Assembly (NCBI GenBank): GCA_944392965.1
Contig: CALXYM010000009.1
Location: 1 to 64,000, forward strand
Origin: an uncultured Spirochaetaceae bacterium
GTDB taxonomy: Bacteria; Spirochaetota; Spirochaetia; Sphaerochaetales; Sphaerochaetaceae
Length of the DNA: 64,000 nucleotides
Direction of reading: 5' to 3'
Shown: positions 9,346 through 63,553 of the stretch, piece after piece
How positions within the stretch are numbered: position 1 is the first letter of the stretch
Layout of the letters: every line of letters starts with the position of its first letter
The notes under the pieces: model-generated
What the model saw: only the letters and a program-made list of their open reading frames with translations
Databases searched by the model: none
Told to the model about the DNA's origin: nothing
Translations under genes and position numbers: made by a program

Positions 9346-9355
9346 GAGGAGTTTG

Positions 9356-49074: not shown

Positions 49075-49180
49075 GGTGACTTACTCTCCACCCTGTCTCA
49101 CATTACTGTGAGCTTCTTCCCGCTCAAGACCCCTGTTGGAGCCAGTATCAACGAGCTATCCCCGCTAGCCCAGCGGTTCA
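49075..49180 (-). ncRNA. Possible omega-RNA/right-end region of the IS element
   Basis: Downstream of the tnpB remnant the minus strand is unusually GC-rich and structured: CTCAC-AGTAAT-GTGAG forms a hairpin near 49103-49120 and other G/C-rich segments (GCTGGGCTAGCGGGGATAGC) precede it. In intact IS605 elements this 3' region gives the guide RNA used by TnpB. Since TnpB here is broken, it is at most a relict. Only position and composition support this call. Confidence 0.3.
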
Positions 49181-49537
49181 GGATGTCTTTACCCTCATCC
49201 AGCAGTTTCTTGTCGCATTCTTGTCCCTGTCATGATGTGTACCACAGGATTTGCATGTCCATTCCCTATCTGCGAGCTTCAGCTGCGTGTTTATCAGGGC
49301 CATCGAATCGACTTCGGAAAGGAAAGGATTGTTCTTCTTCAGATGGGCTGGTGTAGAGTTGAGGAGCTTCCCCTTATTCATCTTCTCATAGCTGATGCGC
49401 TCATCAAGCAGATGGTTCCATACGAAGCGGCAGCATCCGAAGGTCTTCCAGATGAGCACCTTCTGCTCCATGGTTGGTTTGATCCTGAACTCCATGCACT
49501 TGGAGATGACGACTGTCTCAGCCTTTCCTACCGTCAT
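49178..49537 (-). pseudogene. tnpB: Internally deleted TnpB (RNA-guided nuclease remnant)
   Basis: An intact reading frame of 119 codons joins the N-terminal part of TnpB (MEFRIKPTMEQKVLIWKTFG, then FVWNHLLDERISYEK and LSEVDSMALINTQL, residues 15-86) directly to the C-terminal zinc-ribbon tail (WTCKSCGTHHDRDKNATRN, residues 93-111). About 250 residues are missing between them compared with a normal protein of near 370. The lost part holds RuvC-I and RuvC-II and the first Cys pair; only the last RuvC Asp (in HHDRDKNA) remains. It cannot cut DNA. It overlaps tnpA by 20 bases and has a good ribosome site. Confidence 0.8.
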
Positions 49538-49961
49538 AGTCTTCTCCTTGAGTCCTTATGTACTCCTTCAGAATCTCGAGAGGCGCTCCGCCTGCCGTTA
49601 TCAGACAATAGCTTCTTGACCAGAAATATTCCTTCCAGAGCTTGTCCCTTATCTCCGGGAAATCAGCCTTCACAAGCCTTGATGATGCACTCTTGTATGC
49701 GTTTATGAACCTCGACAGCTCGCTGTCAGGTTCAGCCCTGAAGAGGACATGCACATGGTCCTTGTCATGGTTCCATTCCGAGAGCGTGATCTTATACTTC
49801 GGCGCTACGTAGCAGAACATGTGCTTAAGATACTCCGATATGATATCGGTGATGACTTCTCTCCTGTATTTGACAATGAGGATGAGATGGTAGTTCAGGC
49901 TGAATACCGAATGGTTGTTCCCGTCCAGCTGCGTCATTATGTAGCTTTTCTTTCTGCTCAT
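49518..49961 (-). CDS. tnpA: IS200/IS605 Y1 transposase TnpA
   Basis: The 147-residue protein has the whole single-strand transposase fold: the HUH pair as HVH at residues 69-71 (in HDKDHVHVLFRAEP), the catalytic Tyr134 in LKEYIRTQGED, and the typical LWKEYFWSRSYCLITAGGAP segment before it. It appears intact and could still move the element or its relatives in trans. It begins 190 bases inside the DUF212-side end of the element. Confidence 0.92.
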   Translation of the reverse strand: MSRKKSYIMTQLDGNNHSVFSLNYHLILIVKYRREVITDIISEYLKHMFCYVAPKYKITLSEWNHDKDHVHVLFRAEPDSELSRFINAYKSASSRLVKADFPEIRDKLWKEYFWSRSYCLITAGGAPLEILKEYIRTQGEDYDGRKG

Positions 49962-50612: not shown

Positions 50613-51389
50613 ATGAAACAGAAAAAGAGCAGAACGACATTCGATGAATTTTATAAAGAGATATATTGCGGCAGATGGGAGAGAATAAAAGAGAGTTTCT
50701 CTTTAGAGAAGGAGAACGTGAATCTCTCAGATGAACTAAAAAGGCCTTACTTCCTCGATCCCGCATCAAAAATGGTAGCATCCCTTCTTCCCGTTGAAAG
50801 GGGAGAGAGGATTCTCGACATGTGCGCGGCTCCGGGAGGAAAGACGCTTTCAATCGCACTTCGCCTGAAAGGAGAGGGTGAACTGGTGTCAAATGACAGG
50901 AGCCCGGATAGAAGGACAAGGCTTAAGACAGTTATAGAAGAGTGTCTTTGTGAGGAGTATAGGAGAATAATCACCATAAAAGGTTTTGATGCATCATCAT
51001 GGTGCCTCTATGAGCAGAATGCATATGATGCGGTCCTTCTTGATGCCCCCTGTTCTAGCGAGAGGCATGTATATCTAGATGCAAAACATCTTTCCCTGTG
51101 GTCCCCTTCCCGCCCTAAAAGGCTTGCGAAAGAACAGTTTGCACTACTCTCCTCTGCCTTGATCGTCGTGAAAAAAGGTGGATACATACTCTACTCCACA
51201 TGTTCCATAAATCCCGAGGAGGATGAAGGCGTCGTCGAGAAGCTTTTCAGCAGGCATGAGCAGGAGGTAGAGGAAATTCCCCTTGATCTCGAAACATCAG
51301 AAAGGAGGATGAGGGGAAGAATCATAATGCCGGATACGTCAAACGGACTTGGGCCGATGTATGCGTGTCTATTGAGGAAGAAGAAATGA
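50613..51389 (+). CDS. RsmB/NOL1-family RNA m5C methyltransferase
   Basis: A 258-residue SAM-dependent rRNA/tRNA cytosine-5 methyltransferase with the motifs in order: ILDMCAAPGGKTLSIALRL (SAM site, near 70), SNDRSPDRRTRLK, LLDAPCSSERHVYLD (catalytic Cys in P-C, near 146) and YSTCSINPEEDEGVVEKL (second Cys, near 197). The usual P-C-S-G is P-C-S-S-E-R here, as in the NSUN4-like group. It lacks an N-terminal PUA or C-terminal extension, being much shorter than RsmB or RsmF. Target site unknown. Its stop overlaps the DUF362 gene start by 4 bases. Confidence 0.88.
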   Translation: MKQKKSRTTFDEFYKEIYCGRWERIKESFSLEKENVNLSDELKRPYFLDPASKMVASLLPVERGERILDMCAAPGGKTLSIALRLKGEGELVSNDRSPDRRTRLKTVIEECLCEEYRRIITIKGFDASSWCLYEQNAYDAVLLDAPCSSERHVYLDAKHLSLWSPSRPKRLAKEQFALLSSALIVVKKGGYILYSTCSINPEEDEGVVEKLFSRHEQEVEEIPLDLETSERRMRGRIIMPDTSNGLGPMYACLLRKKK

Positions 51390-52474
51390 GCAGTGTGGCA
51401 ATAGCAAGAATAGATGAATATGAGAAGGAGAAGATAAAACAGATTCTTCTTGAAATGACAGGAAAGACGGCTTTTCCAGATGTCAGTGATAAGACCATCC
51501 TCATAAAGCCGAACATTCTCTCTGATGCACCAAAAGAGAAAGCGATAACGACAAATCCCGCAGTCGTTGAGGCTTTGATTGAAATCGTAAAAGAAAAAGG
51601 AGCGAGAAAGATCCTCGTCGGGGACTCCCCCGGACTTCATACTCCCACTTTCAATGCAAAGGCCTCTGGAATTAAGGACGTGATAGATAGGACTGGAGCG
51701 ATTTTTGAGGATTTTACGAGACGAAACAGGCAACATACCGTCTACAGGAAGCTGAAAGTACCAATGGCCGTTGCACTCGATGAAGCGGATGTCGTGATAA
51801 GCGTTGCAAAATTCAAGACCCATCAGCTCATGATGCAGACAGGAGCTGTGAAAAACATGTTCGGTCTTGTTCCTGGTCTGAATAAAAGTCCCATGCATCT
51901 GAAATGTCCCAGTGTTGAGGAATTCGCGAAACTCATAATCTCAATCTTCAGGGAAAGCCATACGGATTATGCCGTGATCGATGGGATAATAGGAATGGAG
52001 GGTGCAGGACCTGCAAATGGAACACCGAGAAAAGTCGGACTTCTGATATCATCGGAGGATGCATTTGCGGCAGATTATTCAGAGGCTGTGATAATGGGTT
52101 ATGAAAGAAAGGACATGCCTATTCTCAATGAGGCGATAAAAGAAGGCCTTACTGATATAAGAACGTACAGCTATCCGATCCTCAATCCGGATAACCTTGT
52201 GATAAAGGACTACAAGAGAATTGAAAGCAGAAAAAGATCCCTTTTCTCAGCTCTCATCCTCCCCTACTTCTCCCGTATCAGGGAAAAGAGAAAGGCTCAG
52301 AAGAGGAATGCTCCCACATTCCAGAACAACTGCGTGAAATGCAGACGATGTATTGATATATGTCCTGCAAAAGCACTCACGATGGGAGACCCCCATCCAG
52401 AGATAAATCTAAATGCATGCATACGCTGCTACTGCTGTCATGAGATGTGTCCTGTTGATGCGATAAAAATCTGA
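51386..52474 (+). CDS. DUF362 protein with ferredoxin-like 4Fe-4S domain
   Basis: A 362-residue protein with a DUF362 domain (IKPNILSDAPKEKAITTNPA near 40, ILVGDSPGLHTPT near 80, KFKTHQLMMQTGAVKNMFGL near 150, DGIIGMEGAGPANGTPR near 205) and a C-terminal double cluster ferredoxin: CVKCRRCIDICP and CIRCYCCHEMCP near 320-355. It is probably an iron-sulphur oxidoreductase or electron carrier; the family has no agreed reaction. The ATG at 51386 overlaps the methyltransferase stop and has GAGGAAG upstream. It converges on the acetyltransferase of the poly-gamma-glutamate operon, 5 bases apart. Confidence 0.88.
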   Translation: MSSVAIARIDEYEKEKIKQILLEMTGKTAFPDVSDKTILIKPNILSDAPKEKAITTNPAVVEALIEIVKEKGARKILVGDSPGLHTPTFNAKASGIKDVIDRTGAIFEDFTRRNRQHTVYRKLKVPMAVALDEADVVISVAKFKTHQLMMQTGAVKNMFGLVPGLNKSPMHLKCPSVEEFAKLIISIFRESHTDYAVIDGIIGMEGAGPANGTPRKVGLLISSEDAFAADYSEAVIMGYERKDMPILNEAIKEGLTDIRTYSYPILNPDNLVIKDYKRIESRKRSLFSALILPYFSRIREKRKAQKRNAPTFQNNCVKCRRCIDICPAKALTMGDPHPEINLNACIRCYCCHEMCPVDAIKI

Positions 52475-52479
52475 TTTAC

Positions 52480-52926
52480 TCAGAGGACCTTCCTTAATAC
52501 TATCATGTCAACAAGCCTTACTCCATCCTCATATATGGGATGGTCGTAATTCTCTAAAAAGAAATTCCGTCTGATTCCGGATTTCACAAATCCACATCTC
52601 TCATAAAACGGTATGGTCATAGGGCTGTTTCCCGTTCCTACTTGAAGAAAATAATATCTATTTCGATACTCATTCTCTAGGAACCTGATAAGGGAGCTTC
52701 CATATCCCATCCTCTGATAGCTAGGAAGAACAGAGAGATTCTTGATCTCAAGCGTGTCCACATCATCCTCAAGGACAACGCATTCTGCTCTCAGAGTTCC
52801 CCCATCAAGAAGGATGTACATCTCACCCTTATCCAGATAGCGTAAGACCATGTCCATACTCTCATCAGCAAGAAGCAGAAGATCAAGATACTCCCTTCTG
52901 CTTCCCTCTACTTTAAGAATCTCCAT
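52480..52926 (-). CDS. GNAT-family N-acetyltransferase
   Basis: A 148-residue single-domain acetyltransferase. The acetyl-CoA-binding motif is KNLSVLPSYQRMGYGSSLIRF at residues 60 to 80 (the pattern Q-x-x-G-x-G/S, with R-M-G-Y-G), and a late IPFYERCGFVKSG is the usual final helix-strand signature. It acetylates an unknown amine. It is the last gene of the eleven-gene operon, 6 bases after the zinc enzyme. A role in modifying free amino acids or peptides from the polymer, or in resistance, is only a guess. Confidence 0.85.
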   Translation of the reverse strand: MEILKVEGSRREYLDLLLLADESMDMVLRYLDKGEMYILLDGGTLRAECVVLEDDVDTLEIKNLSVLPSYQRMGYGSSLIRFLENEYRNRYYFLQVGTGNSPMTIPFYERCGFVKSGIRRNFFLENYDHPIYEDGVRLVDMIVLRKVL

Positions 52927-52932
52927 ACAACC

Positions 52933-54081
52933 TCACCGTATACTCAGAGATCCCTCATCATCCTCATGGATGAAAAAACCGACCCCTTTCTCTATTATTT
53001 CCTTGTAAGAAGGAAGGCTAATTGATACACCCTCCTCTCCTTTAAGCATACCAGCAACTTCAAGACACCTGTCCACTGTGACGACATGGGTTGCAACCCT
53101 TCTGGAAATATCTATACCCTCCTTAGGATAATCAACACCGGCAAAGCCGTATGAGGCGACCTTGTACAGGAACTCATCCCTGCCTGTCGTTATAAGGGAA
53201 GGCGTCATAGCCCCAGGCGTCCTGTCTATGAATGCAGTAGGAACCTCGATCAGAAACGGACATAAGCCTTCTATCCTGGACCATTCAAGATGTGTGTACC
53301 CCTTGTTACTTTCGCTGGTGGCTTCCACACTGAGCTCCACACCTTCCTCTTCCAGTAACAGGGACGCAAGATATGCGATATCGAAGGAGGACTCAGGAGC
53401 GACTATCGTCTGATTCACAGGATATGTGATTGAAGCCTCATGAAGATCGAAAGCGTAATCTATATCCTCCACCTGCAGAAACGTCATCACGGCATTCGAG
53501 GCTCGTTCAAGAAGCGAACCGTCATTTCTACCGGGGAATGTCCTGTTGATATTCCTCGCTTCCTCATAGCTTAGTCCCTGACGGGACGGGTAGTGGATAT
53601 AAAAAGGAGGATCAGGCCACTGGTCCAGGGGAGATGCGATGCGGGAACCGACCTTATACGTCTTCTCTCCCCAGCTCGTACGTATGGTATAACTCTCAGG
53701 ATATGCATAACCGGGAAGGGTTACCGAATACGCACTCATGTTCGCAACAGGCATTACGTATACCCTTCCCTTTTCAACATCGATGTTCTCCATTATAACA
53801 ATCGAAGAGAGTATTCCTCCCGATTCATTGGGATGAGTTCCTCCCATGATGAACACACTCTCTCCCGGGATGCTGGAATCAAAGACGAAAATCGGAGAGT
53901 CTGCACGTGTTCCTAAAAGGGAGGGATCGTAATTGGAAAGGTGAATCGTATGAGAATACGACGAAGATGGGCAGAACGTGTCATAAGTCTCCCTTTCCCT
54001 CAGAAAACAAAAAGAGGAGAGCAATGCGATGATGAGCATTGCGGTGACACATGAAATCTTAAACCTCAGCCTTCTTATCAT
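52933..54081 (-). CDS. Membrane-anchored zinc carboxypeptidase/aspartoacylase-like protein (1)
   Basis: A 382-residue protein with an N-terminal signal anchor (residues 9-26) and an M14/AstE-like domain outside the membrane. Zinc ligands can be placed at His83 and Glu86 in GGTHPNESGG and at His214 in AFDLHEASITYP. The substrate loop NINRTFPGR is at 178-186, as in aspartoacylase/succinylglutamate desuccinylase (N-x-N-R-x-F-P-G). These enzymes cleave amide bonds to Asp/Glu or C-terminal residues. It resembles the gene at 60096 in the same operon, with WPDPPFYIHYPS matching WPDPFVYVNYPS there. Its start lies 23 bases inside the upstream PgsW-like gene. Likely role: processing of poly-gamma-glutamate or a related peptide. 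Confidence 0.82.
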   Translation of the reverse strand: MIRRLRFKISCVTAMLIIALLSSFCFLRERETYDTFCPSSSYSHTIHLSNYDPSLLGTRADSPIFVFDSSIPGESVFIMGGTHPNESGGILSSIVIMENIDVEKGRVYVMPVANMSAYSVTLPGYAYPESYTIRTSWGEKTYKVGSRIASPLDQWPDPPFYIHYPSRQGLSYEEARNINRTFPGRNDGSLLERASNAVMTFLQVEDIDYAFDLHEASITYPVNQTIVAPESSFDIAYLASLLLEEEGVELSVEATSESNKGYTHLEWSRIEGLCPFLIEVPTAFIDRTPGAMTPSLITTGRDEFLYKVASYGFAGVDYPKEGIDISRRVATHVVTVDRCLEVAGMLKGEEGVSISLPSYKEIIEKGVGFFIHEDDEGSLSIR

Positions 54082-55150
54082 CTCTTTTTCTTATTACTCC
54101 GATACAGATAACACCTACCGCAAAGATCAGGAAAATCACTGGTATAGCAGTATTATACTCTATATCGGTATAGACACCACTCTCCCCTACAGGAGAAAAT
54201 GGGACAGCATCGTATACGATCCCATTATCGGCTGCCAGCTGACGAACGTTCAGAAGATTCAGAACGGGAATTCCTACTGCGGCGAACTCATAGTTCAATC
54301 CTCTGTCATCTGTAGTCGGTATTGTCGGTGGATCAAGGACAAGCCCCTGAGGAAAATTCAAGGTATAGGAACTCGTACCACAATTCGGACTTGCTCCCCC
54401 AATGTTCACGAACAAGCTGATATCATCACCATAGAGGTCAAAACGATATCGTATATTCTTAGCCATGTCATCAAAATAGATTACAGGGTAACCTGATTCC
54501 TCGCAGAGAGAGCGGGAAAGCTCCTTTGTACCAGAATATAGAACTCCCTCAAGTATTCCTCCTCCCTGATCATTATTTCCCCCTGGAGAGACGGCAAGAA
54601 CATCAAATGATGCAAAACCACCTCTTTCAAGGGCATGAAGGATATCAAAGATATTATATTCCGGCCTTGTCGCTCCATGCATTGACGCACCTAAGGAGCA
54701 GATGAGACGGACATTGAGATCCATTACATCGGCAGCTATTAGGGAAGCGATAAGAAGACCGGGGAATGATCCGCTGGATCCGATTGCTATCGTATCTCCT
54801 GCACTAAGCCCAGCATTGATGTAATAGCGGATGAGAAGAGCCGAAAAATCAGGACTTAAACTTGTTCTCTTGGCATCTACATCACCTGGAGTAGAAGTGA
54901 GTTCCGTGAATTCAGGCCCCAGAAGCCCGGTCTGATTAAGATCCTCGGCCTCGATGGGAATCCCAAGAGATAGGATCTCTTCTTTCATATAGGCCTCTGC
55001 ATCGAACATCCTCTGAGCAGCCTCAACCTGCAAATCCCTGTATGGATTATCCTCCTCATGCCGGGTGGTATAGGTGAGAACAGCACCGAGGAGCAGTATA
55101 AGGAATGCTGCTATGAGATATGTCTTACCTATTTTCTCTGGCTTCTTCAT
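54059..55150 (-). CDS. pgsW: Poly-gamma-glutamate system protein (PgsW-like)
   Basis: A 363-residue protein with one transmembrane segment near each end (about 12-26 and 337-355). The middle part is exported or cytoplasmic and Gly-rich: AIGSSGSFPGLLIASLIAAD near 124, VSPGGNNDQGGGILEG near 192, FVNIGGASPNCGTS near 252. This matches what is known as the poly-gamma-glutamate system protein (the family defined by TIGR04332) found next to pgsB and pgsC. No enzymatic activity has been assigned. Its start overlaps the pgsC stop by 4 bases (ATGA). It may take the place of PgsA, which is missing here. Confidence 0.82.
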   Translation of the reverse strand: MKKPEKIGKTYLIAAFLILLLGAVLTYTTRHEEDNPYRDLQVEAAQRMFDAEAYMKEEILSLGIPIEAEDLNQTGLLGPEFTELTSTPGDVDAKRTSLSPDFSALLIRYYINAGLSAGDTIAIGSSGSFPGLLIASLIAADVMDLNVRLICSLGASMHGATRPEYNIFDILHALERGGFASFDVLAVSPGGNNDQGGGILEGVLYSGTKELSRSLCEESGYPVIYFDDMAKNIRYRFDLYGDDISLFVNIGGASPNCGTSSYTLNFPQGLVLDPPTIPTTDDRGLNYEFAAVGIPVLNLLNVRQLAADNGIVYDAVPFSPVGESGVYTDIEYNTAIPVIFLIFAVGVICIGVIRKRDDKKAEV

Positions 55151-55584
55151 CGCGTCAGCACTCCCATATGCATACAGAGGAATATGGCGAAGGAGATTAT
55201 AAGGACCGTCAGCAGTGTCTTTATAACTCCCTGTTTCTGCATGTCATTCGCAATAAGACCGGGGATTATGTACCCGATAATCCTGAAATCCTGACTGATC
55301 CCAGAGACATATATGAAGTTGTTCTCTATGACCGCGGAGAGTATTATGCTCAAAAGTACCGTGAGCATAAACCTTCTTCTGCCATAGATGATGAGGAAAT
55401 TCTGTAAGAGTTTGACAGCATAACAGGTGGCGATGGCCAGAAGCAGCGTCGAGACCACCCTGTACGGCTGTTCAAAGAAGAATGCAAGATACCCCGCACT
55501 TACAATACCTCCGGGAAGAAGTCCAAGAAATTCTATGGAAACGAAACCAAGTATTATACTTAAAGCAACAGCTGAATGTAGCAT
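55147..55584 (-). CDS. pgsC: Poly-gamma-glutamate synthase subunit PgsC/CapC
   Basis: The protein of about 145 residues has five hydrophobic segments and the family hallmarks: GLLPGGIVSAGYLAFFFEQP near 22-41, YGRRRFMLTVLL near 70-82, and RIIGYIIPGLIANDMQKQG near 102-120. These line up with the Bacillus PgsC residues T/G-I-L-P-A-G, I-L-Y-G-R-R-K-F and P-G-L-I-A-N. PgsC forms the membrane part of the synthase complex with PgsB. The ATG at 55584 was chosen because AGGTGG precedes it and it lies just after the pgsB stop; an earlier ATG at 55602 overlaps pgsB without a ribosome site. Confidence 0.9.
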   Translation of the reverse strand: MLHSAVALSIILGFVSIEFLGLLPGGIVSAGYLAFFFEQPYRVVSTLLLAIATCYAVKLLQNFLIIYGRRRFMLTVLLSIILSAVIENNFIYVSGISQDFRIIGYIIPGLIANDMQKQGVIKTLLTVLIISFAIFLCMHMGVLTR

Positions 55585-55592
55585 AAGACCAC

Positions 55593-56675
55593 CTACATGC
55601 AAAGTTTTATGAGGTGCTCCCCCGCACCTTTTATATTTCCTAATCCAATGAAGATATCAGAAGTTCTCTCAAGCTCACCTCTGAGCTCCTCAGGATTCGA
55701 TATCACAGCGTCAATGGAACATTTTCTCCTGATATATCTGGCAACTTTGTTCCTATAGTCCCCGATGATGTAGACCTTTCCTATCTTATCCCTGTTCTTC
55801 TGGATAATATTTCTCAGATAATAAATTCTGAACTCCCTGTCTTTCCTATTATTGAATACAAGGGAAAGCCTCCTGCCTTTCTTCTTGAATTCCTCTATGA
55901 GGCGGGCATCCATGCTCTCTTCATCGTTTATGGAGAATGTTGGAATGAGAACAGATCCGCAGGGGAAGGTGATCTCATTATGGAGTCCGATATCAGGGGC
56001 CACGCTCAGAGAAGCTTTAAGAACATCATCCTCTCCGAGGCCGAAGTCTTTCAGGACCTCGACGGCAATAGACATGTCCTCATCTGGAATCGTCACAGGA
56101 GATGAGTGGTCGTAGTGACCGGTTTTAACCTTGTGAAGTTCTTTTACTTCAAGAGAATCATAAAGATCCTCACACACATAGAGTTTCGTATCTGGGGAAA
56201 CGGAACGGGAAAGGGTCCATGCGACCTCCTCCCTGCTATTACCCATGGCATCCATGTGATCAGAGAGAGTGTTAATAATGACCGTATGTGTCGGCTTGAT
56301 GAATTTAGAGGCCATGATCTTCTGACTCTCTTCATGCAAGGCCATGCACTCCACGACAATACATTCACATCCGGCTTTCTCCGCCTTTCTAACAAAGGCA
56401 ATATTCTCTGTGAGCCGTACGCCGAGCCTGCGTTTAAGGATTTCGATCTTCCCATCATCCTTGATGATCTCGGCATCGGATCCGGTGGTCTTGGCATATG
56501 TCCTTATCCCCTTCTCTCTCAAGGCTGCCGCAAGAAGACGCGTCGTCGTGGTCTTTCCACGGGTACCGTTTACAAGAATCCTAATGGGAATTTTCTTTAA
56601 TGCCCGCTGGTGCATCATGTTCTCGATGAAAGCCAGAATGAGCAGCAGGACCAACAAAGCAATAACAAGATTCAA
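55593..56675 (-). CDS. pgsB: Poly-gamma-glutamate synthase subunit PgsB/CapB
   Basis: The 360-residue amide ligase belongs to the Mur-ligase superfamily. Residues 3-18 form a membrane anchor, followed by LVNGTRGKTTTTR (P-loop, near 34-46), TYAKTTGSDAEI near 59-70, VVECMALHEE near 106-115 and INTLSDHMDAMG near 135-146, all of which match PgsB motifs. It activates the polymer end with ATP and adds glutamate through the gamma-carboxyl. It is some 30 residues shorter than Bacillus PgsB. The start is a TTG with GGAG 7 bases upstream. A rho-independent terminator lies only 12 bases upstream of it, so transcription into pgsB must depend on read-through. Confidence 0.9.
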   Translation of the reverse strand: MNLVIALLVLLLILAFIENMMHQRALKKIPIRILVNGTRGKTTTTRLLAAALREKGIRTYAKTTGSDAEIIKDDGKIEILKRRLGVRLTENIAFVRKAEKAGCECIVVECMALHEESQKIMASKFIKPTHTVIINTLSDHMDAMGNSREEVAWTLSRSVSPDTKLYVCEDLYDSLEVKELHKVKTGHYDHSSPVTIPDEDMSIAVEVLKDFGLGEDDVLKASLSVAPDIGLHNEITFPCGSVLIPTFSINDEESMDARLIEEFKKKGRRLSLVFNNRKDREFRIYYLRNIIQKNRDKIGKVYIIGDYRNKVARYIRRKCSIDAVISNPEELRGELERTSDIFIGLGNIKGAGEHLIKLCM

Positions 56676-56686
56676 TTCTACTCTCC

Positions 56687-56715
56687 AAAAAGGTCCACCT
56701 CATTCAAGGTGGACC
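56687..56715 (-). terminator. Internal terminator/attenuator between the C69 genes and pgsB
   Basis: On the minus strand GGTCCACCT (56707-56715) pairs perfectly with AGGTGGACC (56692-56700) around six bases, followed by TTTTT (56687-56691). It begins 28 bases after the second C69 peptidase stop and ends 12 bases before the pgsB start. No separate pgsB promoter fits between, so it should lower synthase expression relative to the upstream genes. Confidence 0.8.
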
Positions 56716-56742
56716 AGTTATTTCATTCAGGATTAATCCTTA

Positions 56743-58347
56743 TTACGGTCTTGGATTGTCAAGATTCTCATTGACAATGTCCGTCCACCACTGAGGATCG
56801 GTCTGAACCTTCATGTTTACACATCCGAACATCAGTTCGCTTCTGAGCTCAGCATCGAGATCCTTGTAAAGCTCGTGCCACTCGTTAGCTGTTGAGTTCG
56901 CATATGCTGTGAGCATGGATACAGCGGCATCCTTGTTACCAGCTTCAATCATGTCGCCAGCTACTTCCTGGATCATTGCCGTCTGCTCATAGATGCTCTC
57001 AAGGCGAGGATCACGTGCAGCCCTAACGATCTCGATAGCGGTCTCATAGTTGATTCTAGCAGTCTGCTGAACACCGGTAGCAACCCACCATGCAGAATCC
57101 TGGTTGTATGGTTCCGTCCTTAATCCCTGTCCGAACTGTGATGGGAAGGATGTCTGAGATGCCCATACAGGTGTGATGTAGTTTACACTTGGAGCGCCCC
57201 AACCAACCCAAACCAGACAGCGAGCTTCCTCAGGAAGCCATGCCTTTACGTTGGCAATCTGGAAATATGTCGTGTTGTACATGTTGGTTGGTCTGTAGAC
57301 GTAGTTTGGATGGAGGATATCACCGAATGGACCTGCGTTAACAGTTCTGGAGATATCAAACTCTGTTCCCTGATAGTAGTCAGAGCAGAGATTCTTAATG
57401 GTCTGTACGGACAGCTTCTCATCAGGTACGACGAAAAGTGGATACTCATCTGCATCACCATAAGGATCAAGTTTAAGATCAGCACAAAGATTGGAAAGAG
57501 CTCTCCATTCCCTGAGCGTGCATCCCATGTTGTCTTCCTTGTTAGGAGCATAAACGTTGTTTGGTTGGAATTCGCCTTCTCCGTCCCAGAGATCGTTCTC
57601 AAGAGCGAAATCAACAAGATTTGCACATGCGCGGAAGTTCTCAGTGTCTTCAAAATCAACATAATCGATTCTGCAGCGGTTAGCTGCTACGAATACAGCA
57701 TTGTCAGGAACACGAACTGCACACCAGATATGTCCGCCATAAGCCTCTAATATCCAGGTGTCGGTTCCATCTGTTATGTTGATACACTCAGCTGCACCGT
57801 TCCATCCATATTCCTCAATCATCTTTCCCATGAACTCAACAGCCTCAAGAGCCGTGGAACATGTCTCAAGAGTAAGATCCTGGATCATGTAGCAATCGAG
57901 GATACCTTCGTACTTACCCCATACTTCCTTGAGCTTCTGTCCCTGCTCAGAGGAACTGTCGTAACCACATGTACTCTCCCCCATTGCAAGACCCTTGTCG
58001 TTCATGAAGGAGTACATACCATGGATGTACTGGTTAGTGTCCTCTTCGTAGGTATAAGAACCGAGTACCATTCCACCTGTTCCATAGTCCTTGACTTCTG
58101 GGAACTGGGAATAATCAGCACCGGCTCTACCATTAAGAACGATGTCCCTCGTCGTACCTGCCTTCATAGAAGGAATGAGCCAGAGTCTAACATCGTCACC
58201 ACGGCTGTCACAGGTATGGCTAATCATCGTTGAGCCATCAACGGTCGCATCCTTTCCTACTGCGAAAATCGTACACGCAGCAAGACCCTGTGTTGCAATC
58301 ATAGCGAAAACAAGGAGGATAGCAAGAGCTTTTCCAATTTTCTTCAT
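56743..58347 (-). CDS. Secreted C69-family peptidase (PepD-like) 2
   Basis: A 534-residue Ntn-hydrolase. The signal peptide (KALAILLVFAMIATQGLAA) ends exactly before Cys25, so cleavage exposes the N-terminal nucleophile Cys in ACTIFAVGKDATVDGSTM. Further C69 motifs are GVSYEEDTNQ-type loop (SYTYEEDTNQYIHGMYSFMN near 114-133), NDKGLAMGESTCG and FVAANRCRIDYVDFED. C69 enzymes cleave dipeptides or act as acyl-amidases; here gamma-glutamyl peptides are a plausible but unproven substrate. It is a tandem paralogue of the gene at 58394. Start at 58347 has GGAG 6 bases upstream; a longer frame beginning in the intercistronic hairpin is rejected. Confidence 0.87.
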   Translation of the reverse strand: MKKIGKALAILLVFAMIATQGLAACTIFAVGKDATVDGSTMISHTCDSRGDDVRLWLIPSMKAGTTRDIVLNGRAGADYSQFPEVKDYGTGGMVLGSYTYEEDTNQYIHGMYSFMNDKGLAMGESTCGYDSSSEQGQKLKEVWGKYEGILDCYMIQDLTLETCSTALEAVEFMGKMIEEYGWNGAAECINITDGTDTWILEAYGGHIWCAVRVPDNAVFVAANRCRIDYVDFEDTENFRACANLVDFALENDLWDGEGEFQPNNVYAPNKEDNMGCTLREWRALSNLCADLKLDPYGDADEYPLFVVPDEKLSVQTIKNLCSDYYQGTEFDISRTVNAGPFGDILHPNYVYRPTNMYNTTYFQIANVKAWLPEEARCLVWVGWGAPSVNYITPVWASQTSFPSQFGQGLRTEPYNQDSAWWVATGVQQTARINYETAIEIVRAARDPRLESIYEQTAMIQEVAGDMIEAGNKDAAVSMLTAYANSTANEWHELYKDLDAELRSELMFGCVNMKVQTDPQWWTDIVNENLDNPRP

Positions 58348-58362
58348 AATTTCTCCTTTTAA

Positions 58363-58386
58363 ATGCTCTGCCATCAAGCAGAGCAT
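58363..58386 (-). other. Intercistronic hairpin between the two C69 genes
   Basis: ATGCTCTGC (58378-58386 on the minus strand reading) pairs perfectly with GCAGAGCAT (58363-58371) around a 6-base loop. It lies between the stop of the first and the ribosome site of the second C69 gene. Only TTT follows, so it is more likely an mRNA-processing or stabilising hairpin, or a weak attenuator, than a terminator. Confidence 0.65.
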
Positions 58387-58393
58387 TCAATTT

Positions 58394-60007
58394 TTAGTTC
58401 ATATTCTTTATAGCCTCATCACCTGCAGCAACAGCAGCATTCCACCAGTCAGGTGTCGCAGGTGTCGACATATCCTTATTTCCATGCATGTATGTCGAGA
58501 TGAGGTCATCAGCAAGATCCTTCCAGAGATCATGCCATGTATTTGCCTGAGCTGTTGAATAAGTGGTAAGCAGTTCAATAGCCATATCCGTATTACCAGC
58601 TTCAACCATCTCGGCCGCGGCCTGCTGTATGGCATTTGTCGCTACGTACTGATCAGCCATTCTCTGATCTCTTGCCTCATGGATTGTATTAATGGCATCC
58701 TGGTAGTTGATAGTAGCCGTCTGCTGAACAAGAGCCGTTACCCACCAGCCAGAATCCTCATTGTACGGTTCTTCTCTCAGGCCTATTCCAAACTGCTCAG
58801 GAAGAGAAGTCTGGGATGCCCAGATCGGTGTCAGATATGTCGAATCAGGTGCGCCCCATCCGAAATATGCAAGACATCTTACAGGCTCAGGAAGAGAAGC
58901 GTCCACGCATGCGATCTGAATATATGTACAGCGATAGCAGTTGATTGTTCTCTCTGCGTGTCTCGGATTGAGAGGATTGCCGAATGGCCCAGCTTCAACA
59001 GTCTTTGTCACATCATACGGTGTTCCCTGATAATAATTACTGGAGAGCTTGTGTATGGTATCCACACTCACCTTCTCCTGAGGTACTACGAACAGAGGCC
59101 AGTTCTCATCCGGATTCTTCTCCTCTGGATCGAGGTTGAGACTCGGATCGAGCAGCGTCATCGCCATCCACTCCCTTCTTGTGGAGTATGTCCTTTCCGG
59201 GTTGGGAGCATAGATCTTACATGGGATGAATTCGCCTTCTCCGTCCCAAAGTCCGTTCTCAAGTGCGAAGTCGACGATGTTCTCAGCATAGATATAGTTC
59301 TCATTGTCTTCGAAATCTATGTGATTGATCCTTGCCCTGTTTGCAGCTACAAATACCGCATCATCAGGAACACGAACTGCACACCAGATGTTTCCGCCGT
59401 ATGCCTCAAAGATCCAGGACTCGTTACCATCAGTGATGTTTATACACTCAGGAGTACCGTTCCAGCCATACTGGTTGAGGATTGATCCCATGAACTCAAC
59501 AGCCTCACGTGCCGTAGAACATGTCTCGAGCGCAAGATCCTGCAGCATGTAGCAATCTACGATTCCTTCATACCTGTCATATACCTCAGTCAGCTTCTGT
59601 CCCTGCTCGCTGGATCTGTCAAAAGAACATGTGCTCTCGCCCATTGCAAGTCCTTTGTCATTCATGAAGGAGTACATTCCATGTAGATACTGGTTGGAGT
59701 CCTCCTTGAATGTGTATGAACCGAGAACGAGGGAACCAGGTCCATAATTCTTCACCTCTGGGAACTGGGAATAGTCTGCCCCTGCCCTGCCATTGAGCAC
59801 GATGTCGCGTGTCGTACCGGCAGGCATTGATGGAATGAGCCACACTCTCAAGTCATCAGTCGTTGAATCACATGTATGACTGATCATAGTCGTGCCATCG
59901 ACACTTGCATTCTTTCCTACTGCAAATATCGTACAGGCAGCGAGACTTTCAGCTGCAATCAAAGCCATAACAAGCATGACTGCAAAAACTTTCCTCATTC
60001 GTTTCAT
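58394..60007 (-). CDS. Secreted C69-family peptidase (PepD-like) 1
   Basis: A 537-residue protein of the same form as its downstream neighbour: signal peptide (KVFAVMLVMALIAAESLAA), then Cys25 as the new N-terminal nucleophile in ACTIFAVGKNASVDGTTM, then SHTCDSTTDDLRVWLIPSM near 44-62, NDKGLAMGESTCSFDRSSEQ near 134-153 and FVAANRARINHIDFEDNE near 235-252. The pair share long identical stretches and arose by tandem duplication, with differences mainly in the middle part. Being secreted, they should work in the periplasm or on the surface. A strong AGGAGG ribosome site precedes the ATG. Confidence 0.88.
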   Translation of the reverse strand: MKRMRKVFAVMLVMALIAAESLAACTIFAVGKNASVDGTTMISHTCDSTTDDLRVWLIPSMPAGTTRDIVLNGRAGADYSQFPEVKNYGPGSLVLGSYTFKEDSNQYLHGMYSFMNDKGLAMGESTCSFDRSSEQGQKLTEVYDRYEGIVDCYMLQDLALETCSTAREAVEFMGSILNQYGWNGTPECINITDGNESWIFEAYGGNIWCAVRVPDDAVFVAANRARINHIDFEDNENYIYAENIVDFALENGLWDGEGEFIPCKIYAPNPERTYSTRREWMAMTLLDPSLNLDPEEKNPDENWPLFVVPQEKVSVDTIHKLSSNYYQGTPYDVTKTVEAGPFGNPLNPRHAERTINCYRCTYIQIACVDASLPEPVRCLAYFGWGAPDSTYLTPIWASQTSLPEQFGIGLREEPYNEDSGWWVTALVQQTATINYQDAINTIHEARDQRMADQYVATNAIQQAAAEMVEAGNTDMAIELLTTYSTAQANTWHDLWKDLADDLISTYMHGNKDMSTPATPDWWNAAVAAGDEAIKNMN

Positions 60008-60055
60008 ATTTCCTCCTTTTAAAAGTTAAGTTTTCCTCCAATGTTTTTCATCATG

Positions 60056-60078
60056 GCCCGGATGAGTCATCCGAGCCA
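60056..60078 (-). other. Intercistronic hairpin before the first C69 gene
   Basis: On the minus strand GGCTCGGAT pairs with ATCCGGGCC (one wobble) around a 5-base loop, between the stop of the zinc enzyme and the first C69 gene. No U-tract adjoins it. It is one of three such hairpins bordering the C69 genes. Confidence 0.6.
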
Positions 60079-60095
60079 GAAAATAAATGATTAAA

Positions 60096-61403
60096 TCAAT
60101 TCTCCCACTTGAGCATGTTATCGCCCACTGGTTCCTTGTAGATAACGTAGACATTGTCCGCGTTGGCAGGATCCTCCGGATTCTTCAGGAAGTGTCCAAT
60201 ACTATCCACACCCTGATTCTCCAGATCCTGCATCTCCAGGAATGTCGGCCATGTCGCTTCAACGGAGGTCTCTGGATAGAACATACTTGCCCATGTCAAA
60301 ACCTCAAGAGCTCCCGTCAAGTGACGGCCTGTGCGGTACCACATCGGTGTTCCGAACTCCATATCATACGGGAAGTACGTAAGTCCAGCATCCGTTACCT
60401 TCTGCAGGAACTCATCCTTACCTTCGGTCATAAGAGCCTCTGTCCTCGGTCCAGTGATCTTATCAATGAAGATCTCAGGAGTTTCCATGAGGATCGTCAT
60501 TGCATCCGACCAGTCTGCCCATTCCCTATGTGAGAGACCATGAAGTGTTGATGGGGATGCCTCACTCTTCATCAGGAACTGTCCAGAGAGGTTCATTCCA
60601 GCCATCATCGCAACATCGAGTGAGTTCTTCTCTGGTTCGACGTATACCATCTCACCAGTCTCCTCGAAATGCTCACGGTCAAGTACTGTCGCAGGTGCAA
60701 CATACGTAGATGTAACAGGATAAAGGATTTCAGCCTCATGCATGTCTATCGCGATGTCAACATTCTCCTGCCTTATTATCTCCATCACAGCATATGCAGC
60801 TCTCTCGGTAGGTGTTCCATCCTCCCTTCCAGGATACGTCCTGTTAAGATTCCTTATATCCTGATATGCCTGGCTCTGTCCTGACGGATAGTTGACATAT
60901 ACGAATGGATCTGGCCACTGGTCGAGTGGGTTCGTATACCTGTCTCCGATCCTGAAACGCGAGGTACCCCAGTCAGATTCGACATGGAAGTACATCGGAT
61001 AGGCATCTCCAAGCATTCCCTCAGTAGATCCGCTGTAGTTTGACCTTGGACATACGATTACCTTACCCTTGGTAACCTCTATGTTCTCCATGATCAGGTA
61101 AGCAGCCATCGTGGATGCAGGCTCATACGGGTGAGGTCCTCCATTGATGAATACCGTTCCACCCTCAACTCCCGAATCGAAGAAGAATACAGGAGTATCC
61201 AGCCATGTGCCCTTAAGTGATGGTACGTAGTCACTGAACCACTTAACATCTGTCAGAGCGTCAGAGACAACTACTGTCTCCTTAAAGTGCCTCAACTCCC
61301 AGAACTGTGCTCCGGCAATCGCGGCAATCACGAGGGCCACAACCAATATGATTATTTTAGATACAAGCCTCTTAGAGGGGCTTTTTTTCTCTTTCTTTTC
61401 CAT
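60096..61403 (-). CDS. Membrane-anchored zinc carboxypeptidase/aspartoacylase-like protein (2)
   Basis: A 435-residue protein with a Lys-rich cytoplasmic start, one transmembrane segment (about 15-32) and an M14/AstE-like exported domain. Probable zinc ligands are His91 and Glu94 in NGGPHPYEPAS and His223 in AIDMHEAEILYP. The loop NLNRTYPGR at 187-195 matches the aspartoacylase/desuccinylase signature. It is longer than, and paralogous to, the protein encoded at 52933. The start at 61403 has GGAGGGGAG just upstream; the longer frame to 61457 overlaps the small membrane gene and is rejected. Predicted to cut terminal or amide-linked acidic residues outside the inner membrane. Confidence 0.83.
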   Translation of the reverse strand: MEKKEKKSPSKRLVSKIIILVVALVIAAIAGAQFWELRHFKETVVVSDALTDVKWFSDYVPSLKGTWLDTPVFFFDSGVEGGTVFINGGPHPYEPASTMAAYLIMENIEVTKGKVIVCPRSNYSGSTEGMLGDAYPMYFHVESDWGTSRFRIGDRYTNPLDQWPDPFVYVNYPSGQSQAYQDIRNLNRTYPGREDGTPTERAAYAVMEIIRQENVDIAIDMHEAEILYPVTSTYVAPATVLDREHFEETGEMVYVEPEKNSLDVAMMAGMNLSGQFLMKSEASPSTLHGLSHREWADWSDAMTILMETPEIFIDKITGPRTEALMTEGKDEFLQKVTDAGLTYFPYDMEFGTPMWYRTGRHLTGALEVLTWASMFYPETSVEATWPTFLEMQDLENQGVDSIGHFLKNPEDPANADNVYVIYKEPVGDNMLKWEN

Positions 61404-61414
61404 CTCTCCCCTCC

Positions 61415-61588
61415 TCACTTGATATGCAGTACCCTTAGGAGGAACGGAATTATACAATAGGCATACATTATGTCGTATACCCAGTTCTCATTCTTCTTCC
61501 TCTTGAAAAGGCTCTTAAGCAGGCTTAACGCTATGAGGCCGGCCATCACGTAGTAGATTATCTGTACTAGGTTCTGTAGAAATATCAT
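61415..61588 (-). CDS. Small membrane protein, 57 residues
   Basis: This short gene lies exactly between the permease (12 bases) and the zinc enzyme (11 bases) with a GGGAGG ribosome site, so it is very probably translated. The product has a hydrophobic segment (NLVQIIYYVMAGLIALSLL, about residues 6-24), a basic loop SLFKRKKNEN and a second segment (IMYAYCIIPFLL, about 40-51), predicting a hairpin in the membrane. I know no family. The position suits a small partner of the DctM-like permease, although it is far shorter than DctQ. Confidence 0.7.
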   Translation of the reverse strand: MIFLQNLVQIIYYVMAGLIALSLLKSLFKRKKNENWVYDIMYAYCIIPFLLRVLHIK

Positions 61589-61600
61589 GGCTCGCCTCCC

Positions 61601-62908
61601 TTAATATAAGAAACTGAATGTCGCAGGCGTGATTATCATCACAACCGCAATAACTCCGAGTACGAGCATCGGAACCAGAGCACTCTTTAAGAAGCCCGCA
61701 TAGGAACCGGTGTACTTCGTCTCCTCGCATGCAAGACGACCTGTAATTCTTGATGGTGGAAGTCCATCGCCCATCGGGAAGATGAGAGAAAGGGCCGCAC
61801 AGATAACCGTAACATCCATTCCAAACGTGTTGAACATGAAGATGAGCGGTCCACCGAGAACAACAGATACTCCATAGTTGAAACATCCCTGCATGATTGG
61901 TCCGACTATGACGATCAGAGCATAGATCAGTACAAGCGGCAGTCCGAGGAATGTACTTCCGAGAAGTCCTCTTACTCCTGTTGCAGCCATCGCACTCTGC
62001 AACACTCCGATTGAGAGAACATTCGCAACCAGAGGGAATACCTGTTCCATCGTATTGTCGAGGATCTCCCCGTACTCTCTTACCGTAGTCTTCTTCGGGT
62101 TACAGATGAGAGCCACGATTGCAGAGATGACAAACATCAATGGCAGTCCGAGAACGGGCATGCTCCATGGCGCATATACAGCCAGAAGGAACAATGCGGC
62201 GATCACGACTACAGGAAGAAGTATTCTCCACCAAGTCATACCTTCCGTCTTCTCAGGAAGCTGTGCGAGAATATTCTCCTTGCTCTCTGGTTTTGCACCC
62301 CAGCCAACATACACGATACATACCGCACCCGCAATGATAATTGGGATCAACAGCAACCAGGAGAATCCGACATACGGCATGTTCGCCTGGGCACACATGA
62401 GCATCGTCCAGAGGTTTACAGGTGGCGCTGCAGCTGAGAGGATTGCAAAGAAGAATATGAAAACAGTTCTCTTCTTCTGATTCACTCCAAGGTGCATAAG
62501 TATGACGTCGACTAGTCCTCCAAGAACGAAGATGGAAACAGAACCTGCTCCGGTTATCGCACCCGGAAGCAGCATGAGCACGCCAAGAATAGACATCAGC
62601 AGCCACTTGTTCCCAACCTTATTTACAATTCCGCGCGTGAGTGTACTTATCGCTCCGCTATGGGCATAGATGTTTACGAATATGGATGCGGCAATGAACA
62701 GCATCGCGAGGTCAAGGTTAACAAACAGACCTTCTATCAGGTACCTCACGGGACTGCCCAGCTCCGGTACCGCGATCACTCCTGCAATCGCAAGTACCAC
62801 AGCCGCTATCACCATCGATATGTCAGGTGATTTCAACTTGATGCTGCTCAATATGAACGCAACAAGCATTATTATGAGCAGAATCAAAGTCAGCATTGTT
62901 GTAGACAT
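61601..62908 (-). CDS. DctM-like TRAP/ion-transporter superfamily permease
   Basis: A 435-residue protein with about eleven or twelve hydrophobic segments and the two-halved plan of DctM/CitMHS-type transporters: PGAITGAGSVSIFVLGGLVD near 114-133 in the first half and GPIMQGCFNYGVSVVLGGPL near 344-363 in the second, each ending in a Gly/Pro-rich re-entrant loop, and a late MGDGLPPSRITGRLA. It should carry an organic anion such as a dicarboxylate or amino acid across the inner membrane. A normal TRAP system needs DctQ and a periplasmic DctP; neither is found, but the secreted DUF6305-like protein precedes it and the 57-residue membrane protein follows. It could import products of polymer breakdown. 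Confidence 0.82.
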   Translation of the reverse strand: MSTTMLTLILLIIMLVAFILSSIKLKSPDISMVIAAVVLAIAGVIAVPELGSPVRYLIEGLFVNLDLAMLFIAASIFVNIYAHSGAISTLTRGIVNKVGNKWLLMSILGVLMLLPGAITGAGSVSIFVLGGLVDVILMHLGVNQKKRTVFIFFFAILSAAAPPVNLWTMLMCAQANMPYVGFSWLLLIPIIIAGAVCIVYVGWGAKPESKENILAQLPEKTEGMTWWRILLPVVVIAALFLLAVYAPWSMPVLGLPLMFVISAIVALICNPKKTTVREYGEILDNTMEQVFPLVANVLSIGVLQSAMAATGVRGLLGSTFLGLPLVLIYALIVIVGPIMQGCFNYGVSVVLGGPLIFMFNTFGMDVTVICAALSLIFPMGDGLPPSRITGRLACEETKYTGSYAGFLKSALVPMLVLGVIAVVMIITPATFSFLY

Positions 62909-62944
62909 TAGAAAAACTCTCCTTAATTCCGATTCTTTCCCGTC

Positions 62945-63553
62945 TTATTTAACGAAGATCTGCTGGCACAGCTGAGAGAACTCCAGAGCGGAGTCTACGA
63001 TTGTAAGAGGTATGCCATACTCCTCGCTGATTGCGTCGAAACGACCATCTGAGTTAGATGCTCTAAGAACGATCATCCATTCACTGACTGGGCATACAAG
63101 ATCAATGATTCTCTCGTTGCCATTTGTCTTAATCGTGGATCTCTTATCCTGCTCAATATGTACTGCGATGATTGGAATATCCATCTCCTGGCAGAGTGCA
63201 ATCACTTCTTCGAGATTCCTTATCTCGTCCTCGATTGTAATACCAGATGCGCCGAGTCCCTTATCAGTCGTTCCAATAACAGCCACTACGACCTTATACT
63301 TGCCACTCTTAATCTCATCAAGACGAGGAAGTGGTTCATCCTCAAGATAGAAGTCTTCTCCCAATACAAATGCCTTTGAAAGGTTGATCAAAAGCCTAAG
63401 CTGCTTTGATCCTGGCCCCTGACCAGCTGCAGTCAGCAGGAACGGACAGTCGTACTGCTGAATCGGTGCTCCTGTAACCTCAGCAAATAACTGTGCCGGT
63501 ACGAGAGCTAACATCATAACTAACAAAACAACAGATAATGCAAGTTTACGCAT
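62945..63553 (-). CDS. Secreted DUF6305-like protein
   Basis: A 202-residue protein, first gene of the operon, with signal peptide LSVVLLVMMLALVPAQLFAE and a mature alpha/beta fold: PFLLTAAGQGPGSKQLRLLI near 37-56, VVVAVIGTTDKGLGASGITI near 87-106, and DIPIIAVHIEQDKRS near 128-142. The alternating hydrophobic strands and Gly loops recall nucleotide- or ligand-binding folds. The family label DUF6305 is from memory and should be checked. It could be the periplasmic binding component for the DctM-like permease that follows. Strong AGGAGG ribosome site and a long AT-rich upstream region. Confidence 0.75.
   Translation of the reverse strand: MRKLALSVVLLVMMLALVPAQLFAEVTGAPIQQYDCPFLLTAAGQGPGSKQLRLLINLSKAFVLGEDFYLEDEPLPRLDEIKSGKYKVVVAVIGTTDKGLGASGITIEDEIRNLEEVIALCQEMDIPIIAVHIEQDKRSTIKTNGNERIIDLVCPVSEWMIVLRASNSDGRFDAISEEYGIPLTIVDSALEFSQLCQQIFVK

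What the first reader, a model, noticed from the sequence alone, without database searches (positions are those of the whole stretch)
52480..63553. Eleven-gene poly-gamma-glutamate-type synthesis, trimming and uptake operon
Seen: eleven minus-strand genes with overlaps or short gaps encode a DUF6305-like secreted protein, DctM-like permease, 57-residue membrane protein, zinc AstE/M14-like enzyme, two C69 peptidases, PgsB, PgsC, PgsW-like, a second zinc enzyme and a GNAT. Known: PgsB and PgsC make poly-gamma-glutamate; C69 and AstE/M14 families cut amide bonds, and DctM-type permeases move organic anions. Inferred: the cluster is a closed circuit that makes a gamma-linked acidic polymer or peptide, hydrolyses it outside the inner membrane and takes the products back. 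I know of no worked-out pathway with this composition.
Basis: partly seen in the sequence, partly recalled or inferred. Interest (0 to 1): 0.88.

Follow-up and report, generated by a model that had tools for sequence, protein, structure and literature searches.

The report
Gamma-glutamate polymer make-and-recycle gene cluster
A gut spirochaete carries an eleven-gene cluster that joins the machinery for making a glutamate chain linked through side-chain (gamma) bonds to secreted enzymes that probably cut such bonds and a transporter that probably takes the pieces back; its seven-gene core recurs in five spirochaete families and in a fusobacterium, and I found no published description of it.

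Summary
In detail: eleven co-directional minus-strand genes fill 52480-63553, with the families named. "One system" is well supported. DUF6305-permease-small membrane protein-AstE is a fixed block in 37 distinct relatives, and occurs with PgsB-PgsC-PgsW in five Spirochaetia families and in Cetobacterium (Fusobacteriota). In 139 genomes of the host's family, all 23 with DUF6305 also have PgsW, and none of the 114 without PgsW has it (p=3e-24). Outside a single clade that contains the window, the C69 slot is held by gamma-glutamyltransferase (GGT), another exported Ntn hydrolase; other loci add secreted C26 (gamma-glutamyl hydrolase family). This converges on gamma-glutamyl bonds. Corrections: the GNAT gene is not part of the conserved system, and the two arms look unequal. 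C69a, C69b, AstE1 and DUF6305 have codon usage close to ribosomal-protein genes, PgsBCW does not, and a terminator-like hairpin sits just before pgsB. The hydrolysis/uptake block also occurs alone with GGT. Best explanation: an envelope gamma-glutamyl polymer turnover system. The closed circuit, substrate and transport direction are inferred; scavenging-first is the main rival. New variant of a known kind (poly-gamma-glutamate operons).

The parts
62945..63553 (-). DUF6305 secreted protein (202 aa), first gene
   Evidence: PF19823 109 bits; signal peptide-like N-terminus; high CAI 0.695; followed by the permease in all 50 loci rows (37 distinct loci); Rossmann-like single domain by AlphaFold2, pLDDT 87.5
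61601..62908 (-). DctM-like (IT-superfamily) permease, about 13 hydrophobic segments
   Evidence: PF06808 weak in the window, 15 of 16 aligned members match, also CitMHS; hydropathy
61415..61588 (-). 57-residue membrane protein, permease partner, C-terminal LRxLxIK motif
   Evidence: Homologue of 47-63 aa directly follows the DctM-like permease in relatives, including Cetobacterium where it is a 'hypothetical'
60096..61403 (-). AstE1: membrane-anchored zinc amidohydrolase (AstE/AspA, M14-like)
   Evidence: PF24827 24.0 bits; HxxE...NR...H...E conserved in relatives; N-terminal anchor; high CAI 0.68
58394..60007 (-). C69a: exported Ntn hydrolase of peptidase family C69, nucleophile Cys25
   Evidence: PF03577 211 bits; Cys right after the signal peptide conserved 41/41; CAI 0.686
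56743..58347 (-). C69b: paralogue of C69a (63% identical)
   Evidence: PF03577 205 bits; identity; CAI 0.769, ribosomal-protein level
56692..56715 (-). Terminator-like hairpin (10 bp stem, TTTTT) between the two arms, directly before the pgsB ribosome site
   Evidence: hairpins of other sequence at the same place in L027, L028, L029, L111
58362..58387 (-). Hairpin between C69a and C69b
55593..56675 (-). PgsB: Mur-ligase-like ATP-dependent amide ligase with N-terminal membrane segment (TTG start)
   Evidence: TIGR04012 217.6 bits, PF08245 35.7; NGTRGK P-loop conserved; background CAI
55147..55602 (-). PgsC: membrane partner of PgsB (probable start at ATG near 55584)
   Evidence: PF14102 110 bits, TIGR04011 115.8
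54059..55150 (-). PgsW: membrane protein with a transmembrane helix at each end and a large domain between them
   Evidence: TIGR04332 278.8 bits; AlphaFold2 pLDDT 94.9, helices 9-28 and 335-362; no close solved fold stood out
52933..54081 (-). AstE2: second zinc amidohydrolase with N-terminal anchor
   Evidence: PF24827 40.6 bits; zinc motif conserved
52480..52926 (-). GNAT acetyltransferase: last gene, not part of the conserved system
   Evidence: PF13508 45.8 bits; absent from relatives' operons

Best explanation
A cell-envelope turnover system for a gamma-linked glutamate chain (or a closely related gamma-glutamyl compound). PgsB with PgsC, using ATP, makes the chain at the inner membrane and PgsW, with its large domain between two membrane helices, handles it outside the membrane. 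Exported Ntn hydrolases (C69a and C69b here; GGT in other relatives) and membrane-anchored zinc amidohydrolases (AstE1, AstE2) cut it into short gamma-glutamyl pieces and glutamate. The DctM-like permease with its 57-residue partner, probably helped by exported DUF6305, imports the acidic products. Shown by computation: gene content, order, co-occurrence, intact catalytic residues, export signals, interchange of C69 and GGT, biased codon usage of the hydrolase arm. Inferred: identity of the polymer, who cuts what, direction of transport, and that the circuit closes.
For: Block DUF6305-DctM-small MP-AstE found in all 37 distinct relatives except where contigs end, with Pgs genes alongside, in whole or part, in 15 of 17 other C69-type loci (the other two end at contig edges) and in 7 GGT-type loci. 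Genome co-occurrence in the family: DUF6305 and PgsW 23 both, 0 DUF6305 only, 2 PgsW only, 114 neither, p=2.7e-24; strong C69 likewise 20/0/5/114, p=7e-20. Same core in Cetobacterium somerae, Fusobacteriota: ggt-DUF6305-TRAP permease-47 aa-AstE-pgsB-pgsC-pgsW. GGT in place of C69 in L115, L118, L151-L154; secreted C26 after pgsW in L117, L134, L136; an N-formylglutamate amidohydrolase (PF05013) next to pgsB in L013. C69-type permeases form one clade, 100/100, so one exchange of Ntn hydrolase explains the pattern. Catalytic residues conserved. Poly-gamma-glutamate synthesis is reported for Fusobacterium nucleatum, and a gamma-glutamyltransferase (CapD) acts on the polymer in Bacillus (PMC3815933).
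Against: The hydrolase arm (C69a/b, AstE1, DUF6305) has codon usage above all 36 background genes while the synthase arm is at background (trend in relatives), odd for enzymes that only trim a home-made polymer. The block occurs without adjacent Pgs in 13 GGT-type loci. PgsBCW occurs without the block in other Spirochaetota. PgsB is below the curated equivalog cut-off. The C69 proteins are below the dipeptidase equivalog cut-off, and gamma-linked substrates are not established for C69 in general. DUF6305 has no known function; no solute-binding protein of TRAP type is present.
Confidence: 0.5

Rival explanations
1. Scavenging first. The exported hydrolases and the permease are a highly expressed nutrient pathway that digests outside gamma-glutamyl or other short peptides (glutathione, dietary or microbial polyglutamate, dipeptides) and imports glutamate-like products; PgsBCW is a low-level branch that stores or displays part of the glutamate.
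For: High CAI of C69a/b, AstE1, DUF6305 versus background for PgsBCW; lower ENC of the hydrolase arm in most relatives; hairpin before pgsB; GGT-type block without Pgs next to it.
Against: In the host's family every genome with the block (DUF6305 over cut-off) also has PgsW; PgsBC sit inside the same cluster in five families and in Fusobacteriota, which a pure scavenging role does not predict.
Confidence: 0.28
2. Capsule maturation. C69/GGT act like CapD: they cut the polymer and attach it to peptidoglycan or set its length; AstE enzymes trim ends; the permease does an unrelated uptake job.
For: CapD anchors polyglutamate to peptidoglycan in Bacillus (PMC3815933); GGT in the corresponding place in relatives.
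Against: Permease, small MP and DUF6305 stay with AstE and the Ntn hydrolase even where Pgs is absent, so uptake and hydrolysis seem to belong together.
Confidence: 0.14
3. Neighbours by accident: separate units with unrelated roles that happen to be adjacent.
For: Internal terminator-like hairpin; rearranged order in L036-L038 and L030-L035.
Against: Co-occurrence p about 1e-24 and recurrence across families and phyla.
Confidence: 0.03

Closest known systems
Poly-gamma-glutamate (PGA) capsule operons pgsBCA/capBCADE of Bacillus
   Same: PgsB and PgsC homologues; a gamma-glutamyl-cutting enzyme (CapD, GGT family) in the operon, as in the GGT-type relatives
   Different: No PgsA over cut-off in the host genome; PgsW instead; C69 instead of GGT in the window; AstE zinc enzymes, DUF6305, DctM-like permease and 57-aa protein have no counterpart that I know of
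Fusobacterial pgsB-pgsC-pgsW operon (Cetobacterium somerae plasmid; F. nucleatum reported to make polyglutamate)
   Same: Same core order DUF6305-permease-small MP-AstE-PgsB-PgsC-PgsW
   Different: GGT and a two-component system instead of C69a/b; one AstE
PgsBCW cluster of other Spirochaetota (L013-L021)
   Same: PgsB, PgsC, PgsW in order
   Different: No DUF6305 anywhere in those genomes; no C69, permease or AstE match within about 10 kb
TRAP transporters (DctPQM)
   Same: Large permease related to DctM; adjacent small membrane protein and exported protein
   Different: Permease under the DctM cut-off; partner is 47-63 aa, not a DctQ; DUF6305 is predicted as a single Rossmann-like domain, not a two-lobed DctP
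PghP gamma-PGA hydrolase (phage)
   Same: Zinc amidohydrolase related to carboxypeptidase A acting on gamma-PGA (PMC4497714), the kind of activity proposed for AstE1/2
   Different: Different family (PF05908 versus AstE_AspA); AstE proteins are membrane anchored and linked to Pgs genes

Membership tests
Poly-gamma-glutamate synthase | PgsB over TIGR04012 curated cut-off | tested here: not met
   217.6 bits against 222.7; full-length match, P-loop NGTRGK present
Poly-gamma-glutamate synthase | PgsC over TIGR04011 cut-off | tested here: met
   115.8 against 96.45
Poly-gamma-glutamate synthase | PgsA/CapA (PF09587) in the genome (accessory in some definitions) | tested here: not met
   only a 20.2-bit match under the 27-bit cut-off; genome 95% complete
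Poly-gamma-glutamate synthase | product is poly-gamma-glutamate | not testable with these tools
   needs chemistry on cells or membranes
PgsW (TIGR04332) | over curated cut-off | tested here: met
   278.8 against 100
Peptidase family C69 | PF03577 over cut-off and N-terminal Cys nucleophile after the signal peptide | tested here: met
   205 and 211 bits; Cys25 41/41
C69 dipeptidase (NF033678) | equivalog cut-off | tested here: not met
   200.8 and 208.2 against 250
AstE/AspA zinc amidohydrolases | PF24827 over cut-off | tested here: inconclusive
   AstE2 40.6 met, AstE1 24.0 against 25
AstE/AspA zinc amidohydrolases | HxxE, NR, H and E active-site residues | tested here: met
   H91, E94, R188, H222 in 74 of 74 rows; N187 in 69 (D in 5), E307 in 72
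TRAP transporter | DctM over PF06808 cut-off | tested here: not met
   19.5 against 23.8 in the window; 15 of 16 aligned members match at E<=0.01
TRAP transporter | DctP and DctQ partners in the operon | tested here: not met
   no such Pfam matches in the operon
DUF6305 | PF19823 over cut-off | tested here: met
   109.4 against 25

The most novel reading that the evidence does not exclude
A bacterial gamma-glutamyl cycle: the cell spends ATP on a gamma-glutamate chain outside the membrane, abundant Ntn enzymes (C69 or GGT) transfer gamma-glutamyl units from it to outside amino acids or peptides, and a new kind of permease (DctM-like plus a 50-residue subunit plus DUF6305) imports the tagged products, so that the polymer serves nutrient capture and not protection.
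Probability: 0.06. Interest if true: 0.88.

Novelty: new variant of a known kind. Interest (0 to 1): 0.64.

Why it matters
PGA is mostly known as a capsule or slime of Bacillus, while pgsBC genes in Gram-negative anaerobes (abundant in Fusobacteria and Synergistetes; PMC5542703) have, as far as I could find, no worked-out physiology. A conserved core that ties synthesis to exported gamma-glutamyl-type hydrolases and a dedicated permease suggests that in these bacteria the polymer or its pieces are turned over and taken back. It gives a likely context to DUF6305 and to a conserved small membrane protein, predicts gamma-glutamyl activity for a C69 subfamily and for anchored AstE enzymes, and is testable in a culturable organism (Cetobacterium somerae).

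Tried and rejected
GNAT as a system component: no homologue in relatives' operons. DUF6305 as a TRAP solute-binding protein: predicted fold is a single Rossmann/receiver-like domain; no decisive solved relative, so function left open. PgsW fold: confident model but no solved relative stood out (best Z 7.0). Permease and AstE by sequence against the PDB: no permease hit; AstE1/2 hit DoeB and succinylglutamate desuccinylase/aspartoacylase-type entries weakly; C69 hits dipeptidase 5iau. Viral contig scans with the permease and PgsW gave nothing. Plasmid tblastn gave only Cetobacterium. A second-permease query was cut in the wrong frame and is not used. Literature: no held paper mentions DUF6305, or pgsW together with poly-gamma-glutamate, and none describes this gene set; most subscription papers were not searchable. 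Phyla beyond Spirochaetota could not be sampled systematically.
Full report
What is there. Family assignments were checked with Pfam and NCBIfam. Hydropathy shows N-terminal signal or anchor segments on DUF6305, AstE1, AstE2, C69a and C69b, a membrane segment on PgsB, several on PgsC and about 13 on the permease; PgsW has a helix at each end and a large confident domain between them. Only GNAT has no hydrophobic segment. C69 and DUF6305 have no other copy in the 2.43 Mb host genome, GGT is absent from it and PgsA is not detected over cut-off. The nearest relatives by the permease are Candidatus Ornithospirochaeta and Candidatus Aphodenecus MAGs.

Is it one system? A scan of 84,980 species genomes with the C69 pair returned 17 loci, all Spirochaetota. 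Those long enough carry the block DUF6305-DctM-MP-AstE1-C69 in one order, with PgsB, PgsC and PgsW and often AstE2 beside it. The Pgs genes move: downstream as in the window (L027-L029, L031, L033, L034), split around the block (L036-L038), or with an extra divergent PgsW (L030, L032, L035). In the 139 genomes held for the host's family, PgsW was found in 25 and DUF6305 over cut-off in 23, all of them among the 25; none of the 114 others has it (Fisher p=2.7e-24; related genomes are not independent, so the p-value overstates). Strong C69 matches: 20 of 25 versus 0 of 114. One of the 20, G328, has its C69 on another contig and of a higher-scoring type, so its tie to the cluster is not shown.

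Beyond the family. In Spirochaetia outside the family DUF6305 is rare; five clear cases were read. Four (L151-L154, from four further families) carry PgsB, PgsC, PgsW, DUF6305, permease, small protein, AstE and a GGT within about 12 kb; the fifth (L150) has the block with GGT and no Pgs nearby. In Cetobacterium somerae (Fusobacteriota) the annotated order is two-component system, ggt, DUF6305, TRAP permease, 47-aa hypothetical, succinylglutamate desuccinylase, pgsB, pgsC, pgsW. So the core of seven genes crosses phyla. Nine other Spirochaetota genomes in three families have PgsBCW without the block and no DUF6305 at all, so PgsBCW can exist without it.

Which bond is cut? The telling feature is the exchange of Ntn hydrolases. 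C69-type loci form one clade of the permease tree (100/100), and the other loci have GGT where the contig is long enough. GGT cleaves or transfers gamma-glutamyl groups (established knowledge). Further neighbours point the same way: exported C26 proteins, a family that includes gamma-glutamyl hydrolases, directly after PgsW in L117, L134 and L136; an N-formylglutamate amidohydrolase next to pgsB in L013. AstE1 and AstE2 keep the zinc and substrate residues expected of succinylglutamate desuccinylase/aspartoacylase (residue roles from general knowledge), enzymes that cut amides of acidic amino acids. This makes gamma-glutamyl material the most likely common substrate, though no substrate was tested.

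Two arms. Codon adaptation against the host's ribosomal-protein-region and EF-Tu genes is 0.769 for C69b, 0.695 for DUF6305, 0.686 for C69a and 0.68 for AstE1, higher than every one of 36 other window genes (mean 0.56, maximum 0.66); PgsB, PgsC, PgsW, AstE2 and the permease are at or below background levels. Effective codon number shows the same split in most relatives. A 10-bp hairpin followed by TTTTT stands directly before the pgsB ribosome site, and hairpins of different sequence stand at the same place in L027, L028, L029 and L111, though not in L033. Terminator-like sites are in excess in the cluster, both strands counted (16 against 7.6 +- 2.9 in shuffles). I infer that the hydrolase arm is made in large amounts and the synthase arm in small amounts. 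This weighs against a simple capsule and leaves a scavenging-first role open. In addition, 13 loci of GGT type carry the block, often with two permeases, two small proteins and three AstE-like enzymes, without Pgs genes beside it.

How it most likely works. Shown: content, order, co-occurrence, catalytic residues, export signals. Inferred: PgsB/PgsC polymerise glutamate through gamma amide bonds at the membrane, PgsW handles the chain outside, C69 (or GGT) and AstE cut it, the permease with its small partner and DUF6305 imports the products. I put 0.5 on this turnover reading, 0.28 on scavenging first, 0.14 on CapD-like maturation.

Known and new. PGA operons, CapD, and PGA in Fusobacterium nucleatum are known (PMC3815933, read; the original 2009 paper was not read here). 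PGA systems have been counted as abundant in Synergistetes and Fusobacteria (PMC5542703). I found no description of the DUF6305/permease/small-protein/AstE partners or of the GGT-to-C69 exchange in the held literature. The window is therefore a new variant of a known kind, with strong comparative support for linkage and untested chemistry.

Noticed in passing
L101:254-4594 and L102:609-4949: In two relatives (G332, G323) a divergent PgsB-like gene (309 aa, no PgsC match) and a PgsW-like gene follow, in L102, genes matching V-type ATPase subunit I and ATP synthase subunit C; an unexplained pairing of a PgsW-like protein with rotary ATPase membrane subunits.
   Followed up: partly
window 49178-49961: IS200/IS605-type element: Y1 transposase (PF01797) and a short neighbouring ORF with a zinc-ribbon-like C-terminus that looks like a truncated accessory TnpB gene.
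   Followed up: no
L122-L133 (for example L125:4287-13103, L131:3441-12310): A second locus type in the same family: GGT, distant second DctM-like permease, its own small membrane protein, AstE, DUF6305, permease, small protein, AstE, third AstE-like protein; no Pgs genes nearby.
   Followed up: partly
L034:9867-11081 and L105:6868-8082: In a close relative a serine dehydratase gene sits between C69b and PgsB, with strong hairpins in the flanking gap.
   Followed up: no
L113:10778-11920 and L120:8438-9577: An M20 peptidase gene without signal peptide follows PgsW in some relatives; it might finish imported peptides.
   Followed up: no
L113:4870-5526 and 8934-9596: Two ~220-aa ORFs without Pfam match lie between the C69 genes and PgsW; unknown family.
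   Followed up: no
window 51365-52474: A convergent DUF362 plus ferredoxin-domain protein gene ends 5 nt from the GNAT stop.
   Followed up: no
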